Below are positions 38,111 to 48,526 of a stretch of DNA of 64,000 bases, one piece after another (within the stretch, counting starts at the first letter, position 1; each line of letters opens with the position of its first letter). A program made the position numbers and the translations under genes. The notes beneath the pieces were generated by a model. That model searched no databases. It saw only the letters and a list, made by a program, of their open reading frames with translations, and was not told the origin of the DNA. Source of the DNA: Pseudomicrostroma phylloplanum (lineage: Eukaryota > Basidiomycota > Exobasidiomycetes > Microstromatales); NCBI GenBank assembly GCA_039545275.1, contig BCHS01000003.1, positions 744,001-808,000 on the forward strand, in the 5' to 3' direction.

Positions 38111-39662
38111 TCAATCTGACAGACCAGCCTCATCGAAGCTTGTCTCATCCGCCTCTTCCCGGCTGCGCTTGCCTAGTTGAGATCCTTGTCTGGTCGAGTC
38201 TTCGAGGCTTGTCTCGTCTCTATCTTCTGTCTCTTCCTCTTCTCTGCTCTCCTCTTCCTCGCGTTCTACGGACCCTTCGTCTAAGTCGAGAGGTGCGATC
38301 TGCAGAAGGCCAAGTCGGCAAAGGGGTCAGTCATCTGATCAAGTCTCTGAGGACTCTCACAACGGCTAGACGACTGACCAGGAATTCGAGAAACCCATGC
38401 CCCTGCACCGCACTAGCTAGATCCTTCTGACCTTTACCAGCCGCTTGCCCCGGTCCTCCAGCAGCGCCGCCCTTGCTGACAGGCCCACTGGTCTGCCCCG
38501 TTCCCTTTGGCATCATCAGCTGGATACACAGCAGTCCAGTGTCGCTGACGCGAATGGAGGCTCTGATCGAGTAGTGCAAAGCTTTGAGCAGGCGGGAGAA
38601 GTGGGACCAGCGATACGAGTTGATCGTCTTTTTGGCGCAGGTGAATTTTTCGAGAACAGAGACATCATTGGGGAACTCGGTCTGCAGAAGAGAGAAGAAA
38701 GGGAGTCAATTACTCGCTTAGAAGGGATTTTGAGGGTTTTAGCAACTCACCTCGGCAGTACCAAAGTCGCCATCGGAAGAGATCTTGAATATCGGTTGAC
38801 CTACTCCTGCGCTATCGATTGACGACGTCATACCTAGCCCAACGCTCTGGCTGCTGCTGACCCTTCCTTGCCGCTTGCGCCCTCGCGAGACCGAGTATGA
38901 GTTGCTGAAGAGCAGTGTGACTTTGCTGCAGGACGATCGATCGATGGACTGCAAAGCGTCGAGAAGGTACTCGGAAGTCATGATGGCTTGAGCTTGCGTG
39001 TCCTCGTGCGAGTACACAAGCCCCAGGTTGTACCCAGGCTCAAAGGTGGCGAGCTCACACCGCGTTGTTACATCTTGCTCTTCCAACAGCAGGATCAGGG
39101 GATAGCCAGTGCCACGCCAGCTCATCCTCATCGATGTTGCCTTGCTCTCCTCTCTGCCTGGGTGTGGGCCTCTAAAAGCACCCGTCCGTGGCTCGTCTTC
39201 GTCGTCCCTCCAGCGCGGGCTGCCTCCTCTTGCGAAGCGATCTTTAGGCTGATCCCTTTTGCTGGCAAATGAGTTGCCTGTTGGAGCCCCTCCAAAGACA
39301 TTCAGGCATTCCAGGAGGGTGTGGAGGTTCAGGTCGAAGTCCAGCGAAGGGGGAGGTGCGTCAAGAGCAGACGATGCATTGGAGGCTGGAGGTTGCTGGT
39401 CTGGGGGCGCCTCGAAATGGAAACGAGAGAAGATGGCGTGTGATGCATAGGCAATGGCCTGTACGGAGCGATCTGCCTCTGTTGTGACTTGCAGACCTGC
39501 CTCGCTCACCGAAAAGGTGGCTACTGCTGCAAAGGCTATGGGTCGCAGCAGCGTCCCCAGCACGGCCACATCGCTGATCTCTGCTCGCAGAACTTCGGCC
39601 CTCGAGCGCGATCGCGAGGCTGAAGAGACACCAGCTGATGCGTAGGATGCCGTGGGAGGCAT
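38111..39662 (-). CDS. Rad1/Rec1 subunit of the 9-1-1 checkpoint clamp, 467 aa
   Basis: Three exons: 39662-38751, 38681-38379 and 38299-38111; introns of 69 and 79 nt, phases closed. The N-terminal PCNA-like domain gives LLRPIAFAAVATFSVSEAGL and AIAYASHAIFSRFHF. A second half has CELATFEPGYNL, and exon 2 carries the well conserved INSYRWSHFSRLLKALHYS with SDTGLLCIQLMM. These match S. pombe Rad1 and Ustilago maydis Rec1. With Rad9 and Hus1 it forms the ring loaded at damaged DNA. Low-complexity inserts (about residues 95-165 and 355-390) lengthen it. The C-terminus is Glu-rich; I end it at TGA 38113-38111 because the exon 3 frame stays open through the earlier out-of-frame CTAG. It is divergent from the NTF2-like gene (291 bp). 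Confidence 0.9.
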
Positions 39663-39953: not shown

Positions 39954-41123
39954 ATGAAGACTTTGGCCAGTCGACATGCGGGTGGCGTGGCGAGGGCAGC
40001 AGGCAGCAGCGGCATCGGCTTCGGCGCAGCATATACCGCCTCCGCCTCGGCATCCTCCTCCCGGCTGACCATCGGTAGGGCTACCCCGCAGAGACACCTC
40101 CAGACTCACAGCAGTAGCGTCGGCGACCAGCGCATTGCACCCGTACTGTTTGGATCATTCCAGTCCTGGGCAAGCTCGAATGCTCATACCGCTCTACCAG
40201 CACAGGTGCCTTCTACACATCCTTCGCTGGCCCCGGACTTCTTCTCGCCGCGCCGACCATCTGCCATGGCCAAGCGACCTCGTCGGACGGTTTCTTTCAG
40301 TCCGAGCTCTACAGTGTTGAAGTCTCCACCTCCTCCTCGACCGACTGGCGGCAACTCCAATTCAGTGACAGATCATGAGTTCGAGGTCCGCTTGGGGAGA
40401 GCAGTCTCGCTGCTACGTGCAACCCTCAGCGACTTCATGCGTATAGGTCTCGTCGATTACGATACGAGCCATGTCACCAGCTCTTCGTCTAGCAGTGGTC
40501 TGGGCTTTCCCAGCCTGGACAGCTTAGGTCTTGGGGCAATCCTTGGAGTGTTTGGCGCTACTGCTCGGGCAAAGGAGAGGCACAGGGAGAGCTTGCCGCC
40601 CCACTTGAGGACAGATGCCGACTGTCCCGTCTACCATCCCGACATCGTCTTCAAGTTTCATCCTCCCACGACGTCTACGGGCAGTAGCTCAGAGGGACAC
40701 CTGGATGCTCGCTCAACAAGCGCAGATGGTAGCTCGTCAAGACTGCTAACCTTTTCGGGACGCACAATGTACTTCGGCTCTGCTCACATCCTCCGGCATG
40801 CTCTCGGAGCACTATTCTCCGAGACGACTGTTCTCATCGAACGAGTTCGTCTACAACGTGGCTCATCAGGAAATTCAGCGAATATGGCAGAGGGCAGCTC
40901 TGCTTCGGATATAGGCAAGGCCCTGGCGGGCTCAGGGTCTAATCGGGAGGCTACTTTGATTCTGCGGTTGACCTTCACCGGCGTGGTCAGAGTGACGCAG
41001 CAAGTCCATGATTATGCCGTGATATTCAGATACAGGTTCGATCCGGAGTCGGGTATGATCATTGAGCATGAGGTGGACAAGATCGAGCCTGCTCCAGGCA
41101 AAAAGGTGAGTTCTAAGCGTTAA
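39954..41123 (+). CDS. Mitochondrial-type protein with an NTF2-like domain; 5' part of a possible COX10 fusion
   Basis: The frame opens with an Arg/Ala/Ser-rich segment without acidic residues (about 55 aa, mitochondrial presequence-like). Residues 150-385 look like one alpha/beta domain of SnoaL/NTF2 (DUF2358-like) type: CPVYHPDIVFKFHPP, a GRTMYFGSA strand, FTGVVRVTQQVHDYAVIFRY, and MIIEHEVDKIEPAPGKK near the end. A good intron (41106-41172; GTGAGT, CTGAC branch site, TGTAG) follows Lys384. If it is kept, the protein stops five codons later at 41123 (389 aa). If it is removed, the frame passes through IWAGLSAAFSRLAGF, which looks like the natural end of this domain, and then runs without a stop into COX10 to 42795, giving 924 aa. 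I cannot tell which product is made. The family call is from fold-like features only. Confidence 0.6.
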   Translation: MKTLASRHAGGVARAAGSSGIGFGAAYTASASASSSRLTIGRATPQRHLQTHSSSVGDQRIAPVLFGSFQSWASSNAHTALPAQVPSTHPSLAPDFFSPRRPSAMAKRPRRTVSFSPSSTVLKSPPPPRPTGGNSNSVTDHEFEVRLGRAVSLLRATLSDFMRIGLVDYDTSHVTSSSSSSGLGFPSLDSLGLGAILGVFGATARAKERHRESLPPHLRTDADCPVYHPDIVFKFHPPTTSTGSSSEGHLDARSTSADGSSSRLLTFSGRTMYFGSAHILRHALGALFSETTVLIERVRLQRGSSGNSANMAEGSSASDIGKALAGSGSNREATLILRLTFTGVVRVTQQVHDYAVIFRYRFDPESGMIIEHEVDKIEPAPGKKVSSKR

Positions 41124-41397
41124 TAAGTACTGCCGAGAGCCTCGCTGACATGCATCCCGCCTGCTCATGTAGATCTGGGCTGGTCTATCTGCTGCCTTCT
41201 CCCGGCTGGCAGGCTTCCAACAACCGGCTCCAGCCCCTTCTCCGTGTCACCAGACGAATCGTAGCTCTCCCACATGGACTTCCTTGTGGGAAGGATACGG
41301 CATGACAGATGCCTATAATTCGGCCAGGGCCAGCGGAGAGAGCAGATGGAGTCGCCTCCGCCCTGCACTTGACACCACTTCCGATCATCGGTCTGGC

Positions 41398-42795
41398 ATG
41401 AATAGGTCTGGAAGCCTGAGAACTTCACCCGAGTGGCGAGGACGGCGGTTGTACACTACGCAGTCGAGGGCAGCCTCGTCCGCTTCGAGCACTGCTTCCC
41501 CAGCTGCTTCAGAGACCGCGTCACAGCAACGTTTCTTCTCACATCCTCGGAGCGCCGAGGACATGCCCGGCCCTTCGCTCGCTTCCATCTGGGTGCCCTC
41601 CCTCGGAGCTTCTCGCAACCAAGAACAAGATCTCAAAGCGGCTCAGAGCTTGAGCGTCTGGGCCCCTGCCTCGAATGACCCATCTGTCGTGGCTCCAGCC
41701 ACCGGTGAGGCCACCCCACCTGTCGACTTGTCGCTATATCGTCCGGCTCCACCTGTGGGGCTGAAGTCTATACCAAAGATCGTCTTCGGACTGTCCAAAT
41801 CGAACTTGACCTTTCTCGTCACGCTGACGGGTATGGCCGGATACGCTCTCTGCCCTTCGGTCTTAGCCGTCTCTTCCTCAGCCTCGTTCTTGGGTCCGGT
41901 GGGAACACTGCTTGCATTAGCTACAGGGACGGCTCTTTGCTCAGGCGCAGCAAATGCCATCAACCAGCTGCGAGAGATTCCGTACGATGCGCAGATGGCT
42001 CGTACACGCAACCGTCTCTTGCCGTCTCGCGCCATTACCCCACTGCAGGCCGCGAGCTTCGCTGGTGTCTCGACAGTTGGTGGTGTAGCGACTCTGGCAA
42101 TGCTCAACCCTCTCACTGCCTTCTTGGGTCTTGCCAACATCTTCTTGTACGCATTCGTGTACACCCCAATGAAGCGGCGGCACATCGCCAACACCTGGGT
42201 AGGCGCCATCGTCGGCGCCCTGCCTCCCCTGATGGGCTGGGCAGCCTGCACCGGCACCCTGGATCTCGCCACGGACGCTCCTGCCTGGTGTCTCGCCGCG
42301 CTCCTCTTCGCCTGGCAATTCCCCCACTTCAACTCTCTCTCGCACAACCTCTCTTCCGAGTACGCAAGAGGAGGGTACAGGATGATGTCCGTGACGGACC
42401 CAGCGCTCAACCGTCGTACCTCGCTGCGGTACGCCCTCGCTCTCCTTCCCATCTGCTCCGTCGCACTGCCCTTGAGCGGAGCAGTAGCTGCCCTTCCCTA
42501 CGCTCTGCTCTCCCTCCCCCCCAACTTGGTCCTGGTACAGGCTGCGTGGGGTTTCTGGAGAAAAGGGACAGAGAAGAGCGCCCGATGGTGCTTCTGGGTC
42601 AGCTTGATCCATCTGCCAGCGGTGATGATCCTCGCAATGGCCACGAAGAAGAGCCTCTGGGATGGAGTGGCAGAGTGGATCGCCAGTCTACGAGGAGAAG
42701 AGTCAGAGGAGACGTTAAAGGGAGCGGTACGAAGTGGAGCGAGCGAGAGTCGCAAGGAAGCTGGGGAGGGAATCGTAGTAGCGCAGAAAGCATAG
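41398..42795 (+). CDS. COX10: Protoheme IX farnesyltransferase (heme O synthase)
   Basis: The UbiA-type prenyltransferase domain starts near 41790 and holds the Mg2+/diphosphate site NQLREIPYDAQMARTRNRLL, then FVYTPMKRRHIANTWVGAI, the family's second half, and about eight hydrophobic helices. It converts heme B to heme O in the inner mitochondrial membrane for cytochrome oxidase. If it stands alone, ATG 41398 is the best start: it gives 465 aa, close to yeast Cox10 (462), and begins with an Arg/Ser-rich presequence (RGRRLYTTQSRAAS). An earlier ATG lies at 41302. However, the frame is open upstream to the spliced NTF2-like exon at 41173, so COX10 may be the C-terminal half of a 924-aa fusion starting at 39954. 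It is convergent with the ABC transporter gene (194 bp). Confidence 0.92.
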   Translation: MNRSGSLRTSPEWRGRRLYTTQSRAASSASSTASPAASETASQQRFFSHPRSAEDMPGPSLASIWVPSLGASRNQEQDLKAAQSLSVWAPASNDPSVVAPATGEATPPVDLSLYRPAPPVGLKSIPKIVFGLSKSNLTFLVTLTGMAGYALCPSVLAVSSSASFLGPVGTLLALATGTALCSGAANAINQLREIPYDAQMARTRNRLLPSRAITPLQAASFAGVSTVGGVATLAMLNPLTAFLGLANIFLYAFVYTPMKRRHIANTWVGAIVGALPPLMGWAACTGTLDLATDAPAWCLAALLFAWQFPHFNSLSHNLSSEYARGGYRMMSVTDPALNRRTSLRYALALLPICSVALPLSGAVAALPYALLSLPPNLVLVQAAWGFWRKGTEKSARWCFWVSLIHLPAVMILAMATKKSLWDGVAEWIASLRGEESEETLKGAVRSGASESRKEAGEGIVVAQKA

Positions 42796-42989
42796 GGATC
42801 TTCAGTCTTGTTACCACCACTCTTCCAGTCGGATCTGGCGCTGGGCGCCCCCAGCCCTTTCAGCGCATCTCCGCCTGTGTCTTCACATGTACTTGTATCT
42901 GCACAATATCAGCAAATCGCTTCTGACGCTAGACGATCGTCTGTTTCCAACATCGGTTTCTGATTCTATTCATTTTGAATGTACTGACT

Positions 42990-45900
42990 CTATCTGGCTT
43001 TCTTGCCCACCTCCTCTGACAATCTCTTCTTCTTCTCCTCCGCCGCGGTCTCTGCCATCTCCTGTAGCATGTCCAACTCTCCCGAGCGAGCACACAGCTC
43101 TCTAAACGAGCTCTTCTCGTCTTGGAGAAGCGTGAGCGGAGAGTCGTACTCGAGGACATTGCCCTTGTCCAATACGAGGATCTTGTCAAAGTCGATGATC
43201 GTGCGAAGACGATGGGCGATGACGAGGATGGTGGCGCCGGGGGCCATCTCTTTGCGAATGGTGCGCTGGATCTGCTGGTCGCTGGCCGTGTCCAGGTTGG
43301 CAGTGCTCTCGTCGAGGATGAGGATACGCGAATCGCGCATCTTCAGCAGACCTCGAGCGAGGGCAAGGAGTTGGCGTTGGCCGGCAGAGAGATTGCGACC
43401 GCCTTGCTCGATGGGCGCGTTCAGAGAAGTAAAGAGGGAGGGCCCCTCGCCGGCCACTGGGGAGCCAGGTCGGGTGGGCGCGCGAGATACGGCAGGCGTA
43501 GCTCCAGATGAGGCAAGCTTGCAGCGCTGCAGTGCCAGCCAGAGCTCTCCCTCTTCGTATCGAGAAAAGGGATCGAGGTTCGATCTGACTGTGCCGCTGA
43601 AGAGTTGTGCATCTTGCGGGATGACTGTAAGCCTCTGGCGCAGCGTCTTGAGCGGTACAGATGAGATGCTGATACCGTCGATGATAATCTGACCAGCTTC
43701 AGCCTCGAGGAAGCGGAAGAAGGACAGGGCCAGGGTACTCTTTCCACTTCCAGTACGGCCCACAATTCCGACCTTCTCCCCAGGCTGGATCTCGAAGGAG
43801 ACGTTCTTCAGCACCGGCTCGAATTCGGGCGTGTATCTGACCGTCAGGTCTTCTACAACGATGTTGCCGCTGGAAGATGGCCATGCGGCAGGCGGCTCTG
43901 TGCCAATAGATCTCTCAGGTTCGATCTTGAGGTACTCCCCGATCCTCTCTACCGAGTTAAAGTTGATCTCGTTGATGGTGATCCCCCTGACCGTCCACAA
44001 AGCAGCGTCTACAAGTTGAATGGTGAAGGAGAACGTGAATCCTGCCAGGGCGGCATCGATGCTCTTGGTGTAGATGACGCCGAGGCCCATGACGATCGAC
44101 ACCAGACCAGCAGAGCTGTCCACGCGCATGGACAGCCACCTGTTCTCGTACCAGAGGAAAAAGAAGGGACGAGACGCCTTGTCGATCAATCGTAGGCAGT
44201 GGCGCGTAAAGCGAGCGGCATCGCCATACGCCCGAATAGCAACTGCTCCGCCCAGCACTTCCCCTACGAGTGTGAAGATCGGAGATCGCTGTACAGACTC
44301 GATCCTCTTGAGGTCTCGGGATGACACAATGTAGAGTGCACCAATCGCAGTATACACCATGATGATGAAGATCGCAAAGACGATGAAGAAGGGCACGGCG
44401 TACGAGGCGACGACGAGAATGATCACGTCTGCGATGATACGGTCGATGAGGAAGAGGAACATCCCTGAGATCTCCTGATCCAAAGTCTCGAGATCCTTGC
44501 TGAAACGATTGATGATTCGTCCGACAGGGGTCCTATCGAAGAACTGCGGACGTGCTCGAAGGACCGCATCCGTCATCTGAATATAGATGTTTCGCGAGGC
44601 GGAAACGGATCCGATGACAACAGCGGCGTCTCTGAGTATGGCAAGTGCAATGTATCCAAAGGATAGCAGGAGATAGATCTTGAGGTAGTAGAGGGTCAAG
44701 TCGGATTGCTCTCTGTCAGCCTTCAAGGCGGCAACAGGATGCCAAATGCTGCTTGGAGCAGTGCTGTTGCCGAAGAATACTTGCGGTGCGTGAGTCGACA
44801 TTGACTTAGAGAATTGCTGCTGGAACGTAGCAAGCGGTTGAAGTACAACACCTTGCTGCTCCTCAAGACGAGGCGAATAAGAAGCAGCCCACTTGCGCAG
44901 CCAGGCCGAATTGGCAACGTCGGTACCTCTGCTGACCAAGAAGAGGACGACGGCTATAGCCCAGAAAATGGCAGAGGCAACTGCACTCTTGAAGAACGAC
45001 CGAGCGTAAAGGTAATACTGAGCAGCTCCGACAGCTCCCTGACCAAACGTCTCTTCGAGCTTGCTGACTTTCTTTCGATCTTGTCTAGTCTTGATCTCGG
45101 CTTCTTCGTGCGCACGAGCATTGTCATCGACTTCCTCGATGATGGGATTGACTTCTTCGTCAGAAGCATCTTTGTCAGCTCCATTCGACGATTTATCCTC
45201 GGCTGGCTTGTCCGAGCGAGGGCCGGTCTCGTGGTCAAACACGCCGTCAGCTGCGAGCTCGTCGGCAGGTCCGGCTCGCGTCACACGCCCATTGTCAAGC
45301 ACCACGGCGTATGAGGCGCCCGGCAAGACCAATGAGACTGAATGTGTGACCAAGAGACATGTCCTGCCGCTCATCAGTGGTCCCAGAAGGTACTCCTTGT
45401 ACAGATGTTCTGCAGTGTGGGCATCGACCGCGCTGAGGGCGTCATCGATGAGAACGTATCGTGCAGAAGAGTACAGGGCTCGGGCCAAAGCAACGCGGGC
45501 CTTCTGTCCCCCGGACAGGGATGTGCCTTTCTCTCCCACTTCAGTCTCGTCATGATACTCAAGGATCTTGAGGTCGGGCTCGAGCGAGCAGGCTTTGAGA
45601 ACACTGCGATAGCGCTGGTGATCGTAAGGTGACCCAAACAAGATGTTCTCCTTGACAGTGGTCCCTAGGAGCCAAGCGCTTTGTGAGACATATGCGACTG
45701 TGTTCGACAGTCCTGATGCGGGATTCACCGGCTCCAATGCTCGAGCAATGGGGCAAGGCATGAATGTGCGACCGCTGACTCTTCTTGTTTCGCCGAGTAG
45801 AGACAGTAGGAGACAGGTCTTGCCCGCACCTACTGGTCCAGTGATGATACTGAGCTTGCCCTCCGGGAAGTGCAGAGTCAAATCCTTTAGCGCGAAGGAC

Positions 45901-48526
45901 TGCTCAGAAGAAGCTGCGTCCTCACCACTTTCTGCGTCAGCATCATTCTTGCCTGCTCCAAAGACGAAAGTAGCGTGCTCAAAGCCCACGACAGGGTCGT
46001 CCGGGCTCGGCGCTGCGTCGTTCTCGCTTCGAAGCAACTGCTCGTACTTCAACGTCTCTGGCTCTTTCAGGAAAGCGTCAATACGTCGCACTGAGACGAG
46101 CGCACTAAGAATGTTGACGATCATATCTGGCAAAGCATCTAGAGGATTCCGGATCAAGTTGAAGAGTGCCAGTGCTGTAAAGGCTGTCTCGGCCGTCAGA
46201 GCCTGCTTGCGAATTTGTGTATGAATGCCAAAGGTCACAACGGTGACCAGTACGGGGCTTCCAAAGTAGAAGAAGGTTGCAAAGAGCCAAGCAAAGCTCC
46301 GCTTCCTCAGGACGCGTAGCTCTCGAGCTCGCGCTTCTCCTAGTCGAGCAGCGAAGGCTTCCTCCCATGCAAAGAACTTGACAGTCTTGATACAGTTCAG
46401 CACCTCCGTGGTGAGGTTGAGACGCTTGTCTGTGGCTTCCAGCAGCTGCTTTTGCAGCGTGACGAAGAACCGAGCAACCAGGGCTTGAGCAGGCATCGCA
46501 GCTGCGAGTACGCCGAAGCCCGCGAGGGCAGACCAGCCCAGGAGACTATAGAGGAGATAGAGGGCAAGACCCAGGATGAGGGGAGCTTGCGGGAATACGA
46601 AGTGCAAATATGCACAGATTTCCGAGACCTTGAACACATCAACGGACACCAGATTCGCAATCTGACCGTCCGTAGCCGATAATTGCTGCTCGTCTGCCTT
46701 GCCCTTGGGCTTCTTCGCACCTTCAGCTGGCGTTGCCTTGGCACCTGTTTCGTCGCTCGTAGTCCGGCTGATCTCGCTTTTCCTAAGGGCTTTGCTGATG
46801 ATCTCGGTGATCAGAATCGCCCGGAGCCGGATGCAAATCCGCCTACCGATGAACAAGCTCTGTGAAGCACAGATAGCACCGAGAGCTTGACCGACGCCCA
46901 TTGCCACCGCATACAGGACGGCCATGTGGACGGGGGTCATGGCTTTGGGGCCTCCATTCCTCTCTGCATCCCTCTCTCCAAGGTAGGAGAGCAAGGCTCG
47001 CAGTCCCACAGCGGGTGACATCTGGAAGGCTGCCTCCAATGCGGCCCACATGATCTGGAGAAGGAGTAAGCCGCGATAATGCCAGATCAACCTCCCAGCC
47101 AACGGACGATTGGATGGGACGAGCGTACTGGCGTCTTCGCTCTTGTCATTCGCGCCACGATTGGATTCGGCTCTGAATCCAGCCACGACAGCAGCGGCTT
47201 TGTCGCCCGGTGGGAGATCGGGCACAGTGGGCAGTGTGAACTGAGTCTTGTAATGCTTGATCATTGCTGGCGTGACAAAGCCGAAATAGAGGCGGCTGTA
47301 GAGGGATGCCTGGACTTCGGGTGGAGGAGGAGCCTCATCCCGAACCTTTTCCTCAGCATTCCTTGCTGCGAGACGATCTAGTAGGTCATCGTTGCCGAGT
47401 TGGGCTGAGGCCTCATTATCTGTCCTTGCCCTCAATACAGGCGAGCGAGGGGCAGGAGAAGGAATAGCTGTCCCCGGCACACCGAATTGCGATCGAGCTT
47501 GCATTGTGCGATGTATGGCCGCCAAGTGGGCTGGGACCTTGCTCTCCAGCGGGAAGAATAGCGTCGGAATCAGGATGATGCCGGCCGCTGCGAGCTTCAA
47601 TGCTGCGAGGACGAGGTCAGCTTCCGGAGCCCCATGGCTGATCGTGGTTGAGCGGAGGTTTGATATCGCGACGACGAAGTAGATCAAGAAGATCGCCGTC
47701 TTGTGGCTGTAGAGTGAATGAGAAGTGCCAAGCGAGAAGCCTCCCAGGACTGCGAGATAGATCTGGAGTACAGGAAAGAGCGCCGTTGGGGTTCATGCGT
47801 CAGAATAGCTGTACAGAAGCTCCTCGAACCTCTACGGCCTCATATCTCGTCAACTCACCCAAGTCGTGCCCCACACTGCCTCTGTCCGTCCACCTCCCAT
47901 CATCCACCCAGCAGCATGTAGCGAGGCTAGGATCACAGCGCCAAATGTATCGACGCATCTCTTTGATGTGTCCAGAACCCTTTTCCTAGAGAGCTCTCCT
48001 TCCGACATTTGTCGCAGGGGGATGGAGTGCACCTCGTTGAGGATCATCGCATTCTCCGTCCTGAACACAGCAAGGGTCGCAGCGCTGACCGGCTCTCCTG
48101 CTGAATCCTTGCCCTTTTTGCCAGTAGCCTTGGAACTGCCCCATGATGACAGACTCTTCACAGCCCTCCCAATGATACCCCTTTGTCTTCCCTCTCTTTG
48201 GCCGTCTACCTCGCCCTCTCCAGTGAGTCGAGTGGTAGCGAAATTGGACGCAGAGGGGTCCAGCTGAGCAATGACTCTCGCGGACCTCCTATGCTTCCGC
48301 CTGGAAAGCGCATACTGCAGGAGAAAGACGAGAAGAGAGACTAGCAGCGCACCCAGTGGTAGCGCTGTATTGATGATCCTGATGGCGAGGCAAAAGGAAA
48401 GAGAAAGGCCCACAGCGGAGTTGTCAGCAGGAAGGTCCTGGCACTACGAGGGTCAGAATAGACTCACTTTTCACGGAAGCATGGCGTCCAGTCGACGTTG
48501 TCGTGAACGCTTGAACAGCCGAGCAT
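42990..48526 (-). CDS. Full-length ABCC (MRP-type) ABC transporter, 1783 aa
   Basis: Three exons: 48526-48468, 48378-47859 and 47762-42990, joined in phase. The order is TMD0 helices (including one built across exons 1-2), a long linker, TMD1, NBD1, a charged linker, TMD2, NBD2. NBD1 has Walker A GPVGAGKT (about residue 840), signature LSGGQKARVALARAL and LIDDALSAVDA. The Asp in place of the catalytic Glu is the usual ABCC degenerate site. NBD2 has GRTGSGKST (about 1530), NLSAGQRQLLALARGLL and LILDESTANLD with the catalytic Glu. Relatives such as Ycf1, Ybt1 and Bpt1 move glutathione conjugates, bile acids or pigments into the vacuole. The substrate cannot be inferred. The start MLGCSSVHDNVDW..CFRE is typical of the luminal N-terminus of this group, and the short first exon is supported by phase and a GTGAGT donor. 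Confidence 0.92.

What the first reader, a model, noticed from the sequence alone, without database searches (positions are those of the whole stretch)
39954..42795. One intron decides whether an NTF2-like protein is separate from, or fused in frame to, COX10
Seen directly: removing the 67-nt intron 41106-41172 leaves a frame open from 39954 to the COX10 stop at 42795 (924 aa), with no stop anywhere in the about 225 bp before the stand-alone COX10 ATG. Keeping the intron ends the first protein five codons later. Both halves start with Arg/Ser-rich, acid-poor segments that look like mitochondrial presequences, the second one (around RGRRLYTTQ) being internal in the fusion. Yeast Arg5,6 is a known mitochondrial polyprotein cleaved at an internal presequence, so a similar heme O synthase precursor, or alternative splicing giving two products, is a reasonable inference. 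I do not know of a described COX10 fusion of this kind.
Basis: partly seen in the sequence, partly recalled or inferred. Interest (0 to 1): 0.75.

Follow-up and report, generated by a model that had tools for sequence, protein, structure and literature searches.

The report
COX10 made as mitochondrial double precursor
In a group of basidiomycete fungi the essential heme-modifying enzyme COX10 is encoded as the tail of one long protein that also carries an unrelated NTF2-like protein, most likely cut apart inside mitochondria, and a different COX10 fusion in smut fungi suggests that this enzyme has been captured this way at least twice.

Summary
In detail: removing the 67-nt intron 41106-41172 leaves one open frame, 39954-42795 (924 aa), joining an NTF2-like protein to heme O synthase (COX10), the only COX10 found in this genome. 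The fusion is conserved: nine database proteins (the three named ones are Microstromatales) share it and form one clade with it (100/99). "One intron decides" is not supported. The intron lies inside the NTF2-like gene; exon 2 begins with that protein's own C-terminal helix, retention tails are not conserved, and several fused relatives appear to lack the intron. Every linker compared (10 of 10) holds one conserved RRxYTTQS-like block, a likely MPP site. In 5 of 10 no Met lies between the NTF2 part and that block, so a separate COX10 keeping this leader could not start at AUG. Best explanation: one precursor, cleaved in mitochondria like Arg5,6 or Rsm22-Cox11. Cleavage is inferred; no RNA or protein data were available, and an amphipathicity test gave no support. 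Unexpectedly, smut fungi (Ustilaginomycetes) carry COX10 as the C-terminal third of a CCDC90-like/TauD/COX10 protein of about 1500 aa with similar linker motifs. So COX10 became the tail of such proteins at least twice.

The parts
39954..41105 (+). Exon 1: basic N-terminal presequence-like region (about residues 1-55) and most of the NTF2-like protein (residues 1-384)
   Evidence: translation; start ATG shared with P0001, 84% identical; only copy in the genome at E below 0.01
40371..41105 (+). NTF2-like fold domain, residues 140-384 (completed by the exon-2 helix)
   Evidence: AlphaFold2 model and PDB comparisons
41106..41172 (+). 67-nt phase-0 spliceosomal intron, GTGAGT ... CTGAC ... TAG
   Evidence: frames of P0001, P0002, P0003 and P0045 diverge at the same codon
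41173..41217 (+). Start of exon 2: IWAGLSAAFSRLAG(F), C-terminal helix of the NTF2-like protein
   Evidence: aligned with C-termini of separate P0044 and P0046; helix 313-326 in the full-length model of P0012
41218..41556 (+). Poorly conserved linker, open in frame in the 10 fusions compared
   Evidence: pLDDT under 50 for most of the matching stretch of P0012
41434..41466 (+). Conserved block WRGRRLYTTQS; predicted internal MPP site between Y478 and T479 (41454/41455), arginine at position -3
   Evidence: cleavage itself inferred
41560..41580 (+). DMPGPSL, conserved near the start of the predicted mature COX10 region
41854..42603 (+). UbiA prenyltransferase domain (heme O synthase, COX10)
   Evidence: PF01040; TIGR01473
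41173..42795 (+). Exon 2 with the COX10 stop codon at 42793-42795

Best explanation
The locus is one gene making one mRNA. After constitutive removal of the 67-nt intron it encodes a single 924-aa mitochondrial precursor. An N-terminal presequence would start import; the internal arginine-rich segment ending RRLY/TTQS would act as a second presequence. The matrix processing peptidase (MPP) would cut there, after Y478, releasing an NTF2-like matrix protein with a disordered tail and a 446-residue COX10 that inserts in the inner membrane. Shown here: the fused frame, its conservation, the identity of both parts, the conserved block, and the lack of alternative AUG starts in half of the fusions. 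Inferred: transcription as one mRNA, import and cleavage.
For: Nine fused relatives of 758-886 aa: gene models of Parajaminaea phylloscopi, Sympodiomycopsis kandeliae and Jaminaea rosea, and 6 'lgn' proteins. The lgn calls behave as intron-unaware frames (P0001, P0003 and P0045 run off where the intron lies), so P0007-P0011, on contigs of 6-57 kb, are probably uninterrupted genomic frames. All 10 fusions form one clade, 100/99. The pattern R-x-[YF]-[SATL]-[ST] occurs in 10 of 10 linkers (4-12% of shuffles of each have it); elsewhere in these ten proteins it occurs only near the N-termini of P0004 and P0006. No Met between the NTF2 C-terminus and that block in 5 of 10. Predicted mature COX10 is 420-459 aa. 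The fusion is the only COX10 found: of two UbiA loci the other passes the 4-hydroxybenzoate prenyltransferase model (276.9 bits, cut-off 275.45) and fails the heme O synthase one (55, cut-off 210.3). Precedents cleaved after import: Rsm22-Cox11 and Arg5,6 (passages of PMC8847149, PMC4381221, PMC12375894).
Against: No transcript or peptide data were available. The amphipathic-helix test failed: the hydrophobic moment in the 45 residues ending at the site exceeded 95% of shuffles in 0 of 10 fusions. The same test on N-termini gave 0 of 11 unfused COX10 (11 of the 13 such rows were tested) and 2 of 8 N-termini of NTF2-like or fused proteins (P0044, P0005), so it discriminates poorly. Net charge upstream of the site is high but not unique (33 of 880 45-mers of this protein are as high; 146 of 791 for P0010). 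In this species Mets at 41302 and 41398 could start a separate COX10; in all, 5 of 10 fusions have such a Met.
Confidence: 0.78

Rival explanations
1. The fusion stays intact: an NTF2-like matrix domain tethered by a long disordered linker to membrane COX10, working as one bifunctional protein.
For: Fusion conserved in a whole clade; nothing here shows cleavage.
Against: The best conserved inner block of an otherwise variable linker of 112-143 residues looks like a processing site; tandem precursors known from other fungi are cleaved.
Confidence: 0.12
2. Two products from one locus by regulation: intron retention gives the NTF2-like protein alone, and a downstream start gives COX10 alone.
For: The retained intron brings stops into frame, and this species has in-frame ATGs at 41302 and 41398.
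Against: Retention cuts off the conserved C-terminal helix; tails differ between species; fused lgn relatives appear to lack the intron; 5 of 10 fusions have no Met before the conserved block.
Confidence: 0.07
3. Two adjacent genes whose reading frames happen to be joined, an annotation artefact.
For: In the window alone an open linker is not rare by chance (4-14%).
Against: Nine relatives from several sources keep the frame open, and the block inside the linker is conserved.
Confidence: 0.03

Closest known systems
Rsm22-Cox11 of Schizosaccharomyces pombe
   Same: A cytochrome oxidase assembly factor is part of a tandem mitochondrial precursor whose parts are separated after import (passages of PMC4381221 and PMC12375894)
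   Different: Other proteins on both sides; cleavage was shown there and is only predicted here
Arg5,6 of Saccharomyces cerevisiae, and the further composite precursors listed with it (Atp25, Etp1, SPAC22A12.08c, rice RPS14)
   Same: Internal MPP cleavage of one precursor into two proteins, shown for Arg5,6 and predicted for the others (passages of PMC8847149 and PMC8835746)
   Different: None is described in these passages as containing COX10 or an NTF2-like protein; the primary paper is not held
CCDC90-like / TauD / COX10 proteins of Ustilaginomycetes (Ustilago, Sporisorium, Thecaphora, Violaceomyces and others)
   Same: COX10 is the C-terminal part; an arginine-rich R-x-F-S-type motif stands just before it
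   Different: Two other upstream partners; separate clade; in the window's genome a CCDC90-like and the most similar TauD gene are separate, on other contigs
Separate COX10 (Tilletia) and separate NTF2-like homologues (Meira, Sporisorium)
   Same: Homologous parts (Meira 39% identical to exon 1 over 318 columns)
   Different: Not fused to each other

Membership tests
MPP-processed tandem mitochondrial precursors | One reading frame encodes two proteins that are separate genes in relatives | tested here: met
MPP-processed tandem mitochondrial precursors | Both parts are mitochondrial | tested here: inconclusive
   COX10 is mitochondrial by family knowledge. The NTF2-like part has a basic N-terminus (net +5 in 45 residues); the Meira homologue weakly matches PF17119, described as a mitochondrial family (19.2 bits, cut-off 26.6)
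MPP-processed tandem mitochondrial precursors | Internal presequence with an MPP-like site | tested here: inconclusive
   Motif and conservation in 10 of 10; hydrophobic moment not above shuffles, 0 of 10
MPP-processed tandem mitochondrial precursors | Two mature proteins after import | not testable with these tools
   needs an import assay or proteomics
Heme O synthase (COX10/CtaB) | Passes the curated model TIGR01473 | tested here: met
   240.6 bits against cut-off 210.3 for exon 2
NTF2-like superfamily | Helix plus curved beta-sheet NTF2 fold | tested here: met
MMU163 (PF17119) | Score above the curated cut-off | tested here: not met
   Meira 19.2 and P0045 15.0 bits against 26.6; not listed for P0046, P0001, P0003 nor for the 9 members of A2; own genome none, but the control genomes gave none either
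DUF2358 (PF10184) | Match in the fusion or the window's genome | tested here: not met

The most novel reading that the evidence does not exclude
COX10 is a recurrent passenger of mitochondrial polyproteins in Ustilaginomycotina. It was captured independently behind an NTF2-like protein (Microstromatales) and as the last third of a three-protein CCDC90-like/TauD/COX10 precursor (smut fungi), perhaps a third time behind an LYR-like protein in one Malassezia. MPP would cut each precursor at arginine-rich sites, and COX10, reported as about 8-fold scarcer than Cox15 and probably rate-limiting for heme a (PMC7140478, passages), would gain its dose and import from its partners.
Probability: 0.55. 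Interest if true: 0.76.

Novelty: new variant of a known kind. Interest (0 to 1): 0.62.

Why it matters
Few natural mitochondrial polyproteins with internal processing are known (from recall and the short list in PMC8847149). This would add one with an essential membrane enzyme, plus a probable three-part one. Two independent captures of one enzyme make it testable why such fusions arise: neutral joining rescued by MPP, or selection for fixed dose. It also links an uncharacterised NTF2-like family to the mitochondrion and perhaps to cytochrome oxidase biogenesis, and suggests that these long COX10 gene models are not merge errors.

Tried and rejected
Amphipathicity of the internal presequence: no signal (0 of 10); on N-termini the test found 0 of 11 unfused COX10 and 2 of 8 NTF2-like or fused proteins. 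Sequence search of solved structures with the NTF2-like alignment A2: 0 matches at E up to 10. DUF2358 as the family of the first half: rejected. MMU163: only a sub-threshold lead. Intron retention as a designed second product: rejected on unlike tails and loss of the C-terminal helix. Malassezia LYR-like fusion: one record, below the curated cut-off, left as a lead. Literature: no COX10 fusion seen in the listings of searches (COX10 among the terms) or 34 and 64 (mitochondrial polyproteins in general); open-licence PMC only, listings read, not the papers. mug163: 0 papers. Limits: the three homologue searches scored only about 8,000 candidates each and only proteins of 0.55-1.75 times the query's length, so COX10 proteins under about 508 aa were not seen, and no census of fused versus unfused species is claimed. 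Relatives' DNA was not fetched. P0011 begins inside the NTF2 domain, and P0007 and P0008 may lack an upstream exon. In the tree (midpoint root) I labelled 13 rows 'alone' by length and Pfam; one of them (P0042) carries a second Pfam domain, and P0034 of the 17 'TRI' rows is a fragment without the CCDC90 part. The closest TauD gene of the own genome was picked among the loci held, not by a whole-genome protein search; a second CCDC90-like locus lies on C1 and was not studied.

Full report
What is there. The window lies in a 17.08-Mb, 20-contig genome (C3:744001-808000). Exon 1 (39954-41105) and exon 2 (41173-42795) give a 924-aa protein once the 67-nt intron is removed. The intron has a GTGAGT donor, a CTGAC branch-like element and a TAG acceptor; a consensus scan of 41001-41800 listed it and one 120-nt alternative with the same 3' end. 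The gene stands between a Rad1-family gene (38739-39662, minus strand) and an ABC transporter (42990-47687, minus strand), both by Pfam. The genome has two UbiA loci. The other, C9:472056-472826, passes the 4-hydroxybenzoate prenyltransferase model and fails the heme O synthase model, so the fusion is the only COX10 found. One copy of the NTF2-like sequence was found at E below 0.01.

Chance. The openness of the linker is not strong by itself: order-1 Markov sequences of the same composition are open over 225 bp in 14% and over 128 codons in 4% of cases. The argument rests on relatives.

Relatives. The full-length query found 40 proteins at E up to 0.001 among 7,993 scored candidates: 9 with the same NTF2-like plus COX10 architecture (P0004-P0012, 758-886 aa), 17 with a TauD domain before COX10 (P0013-P0027, P0033, P0034; 16 of them also with the CCDC90-like domain), and 14 others. 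Three of the nine are named, Parajaminaea phylloscopi, Sympodiomycopsis kandeliae and Jaminaea rosea, all Microstromatales. The other six come from 'lgn' contigs. Proteins P0001, P0003 and P0045 from the same source run off where the intron lies, so these calls appear not to handle introns; the fused lgn proteins on contigs of 6,264 to 57,234 bases (P0007-P0011) are then probably uninterrupted genomic frames. That is an inference: I did not have their DNA. P0004's contig (3,902 bases) could be a transcript, and P0011 begins inside the NTF2 domain.

The intron. Four relatives (P0001, P0002, P0003, P0045) leave the alignment at the same codon boundary with a reading compatible with a GT donor, into unlike tails of 4, 13, 25 and 14 residues; the window's own tail is 5. 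Separate homologues of the first half are Meira miltonrushii P0044 (381 aa) and Sporisorium reilianum P0046 (430 aa). Their C-termini (KLWFGLASVWQRITG, KVWAGLTNAWGTLS) align with the start of exon 2 (KIWAGLSAAFSRLAG). P0045 is 55% identical to the Meira protein and the Meira protein is 39% identical to exon 1. So the intron lies inside the NTF2-like gene, probably predates the fusion, and seems to have been lost in several fused species. I see no sign that it is a switch.

The linker. Among the ten fusions the linker varies in length and sequence except for its first residues, one block, and its end. The block reads W-Q-R-R-R-x-Y-T-T-Q-S or a variant (most divergent: P0009 RRRSFLTNS), and R-x-[YF]-[SATL]-[ST] is found in each linker (10 of 10; 4-12% of shuffled linkers have it). 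The ten are related, so these are not ten independent cases. Arginine at -2 or -3 is a known property of MPP sites (PMC8835746, passage); the name R-3 site is recalled. In 5 of 10 fusions (P0004, P0006, P0007, P0010, P0012) no methionine lies between the NTF2 C-terminus and the block, so a COX10 begun at a downstream AUG would lack this leader; the other 5, this window's among them, have one to three. Results against: hydrophobic moments upstream of the site do not exceed shuffles (0 of 10 at the 5% level); of the N-termini tested as a yardstick, 0 of 11 unfused COX10 and 2 of 8 NTF2-like or fused proteins do.

A second COX10 fusion. In Ustilaginomycetes, including Thecaphora (Urocystidales) and Violaceomyces, COX10 follows a CCDC90-like and a TauD domain in proteins of about 1500 aa (one source names it gamma-butyrobetaine hydroxylase). 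Two come from lgn contigs (P0016, P0027). The short stretch between TauD and COX10 carries the same strict pattern in 15 of 17, looser forms in the other two, and no methionine up to it in 14 of 17. The stretch between CCDC90 and TauD also shows the strict pattern in 10 of 17. In a tree of 41 COX10 domains the 10 NTF2-fused rows form one clade (100/99) and the 17 TauD-fused rows another (97/94). The partners differ, and Sporisorium reilianum has both a TauD-type COX10 (P0017) and a separate NTF2-like protein (P0046). In the window's genome a CCDC90-like gene (C5) and the most similar TauD gene among the loci held (C2:118186-119182) end in their own stops. Hence two independent captures of COX10 is the simplest reading.

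Mechanism. Single precursor, import by an N-terminal presequence, internal MPP cut after Y478, separate NTF2-like and 446-residue COX10 proteins. Rsm22-Cox11 of fission yeast is the closest functional precedent (passages of PMC4381221 and PMC12375894); Arg5,6 is the one described in most detail in what I saw (passages of PMC8847149). I saw no mention of a COX10 fusion in the listings of searches, which cover open-licence PMC papers only. Deposited gene models already contain the fusion under COX10 names, e.g. J. rosea P0012.

Noticed in passing
P0013-P0027, P0033, P0034: COX10 of smut fungi and Violaceomyces is the C-terminal part of a CCDC90-like / TauD / COX10 protein of about 1500 aa with presequence-like motifs at the junctions: a probable three-part mitochondrial polyprotein.
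   Followed up: partly
P0031, Malassezia sp. CBS 17886: A COX10 model of 842 aa with an LYRM2-like N-terminal part (24.6 bits, cut-off 26.8); possibly a third fusion, or a faulty gene model.
   Followed up: no
P0044, Meira miltonrushii: The separate NTF2-like homologue weakly matches PF17119 (MMU163), which may extend that poorly known mitochondrial family to Ustilaginomycotina.
   Followed up: partly
window 42796-42989: Only about 195 bases separate the COX10 stop from the end of the convergent ABC transporter gene, so the two transcripts may overlap at their 3' ends.
   Followed up: no
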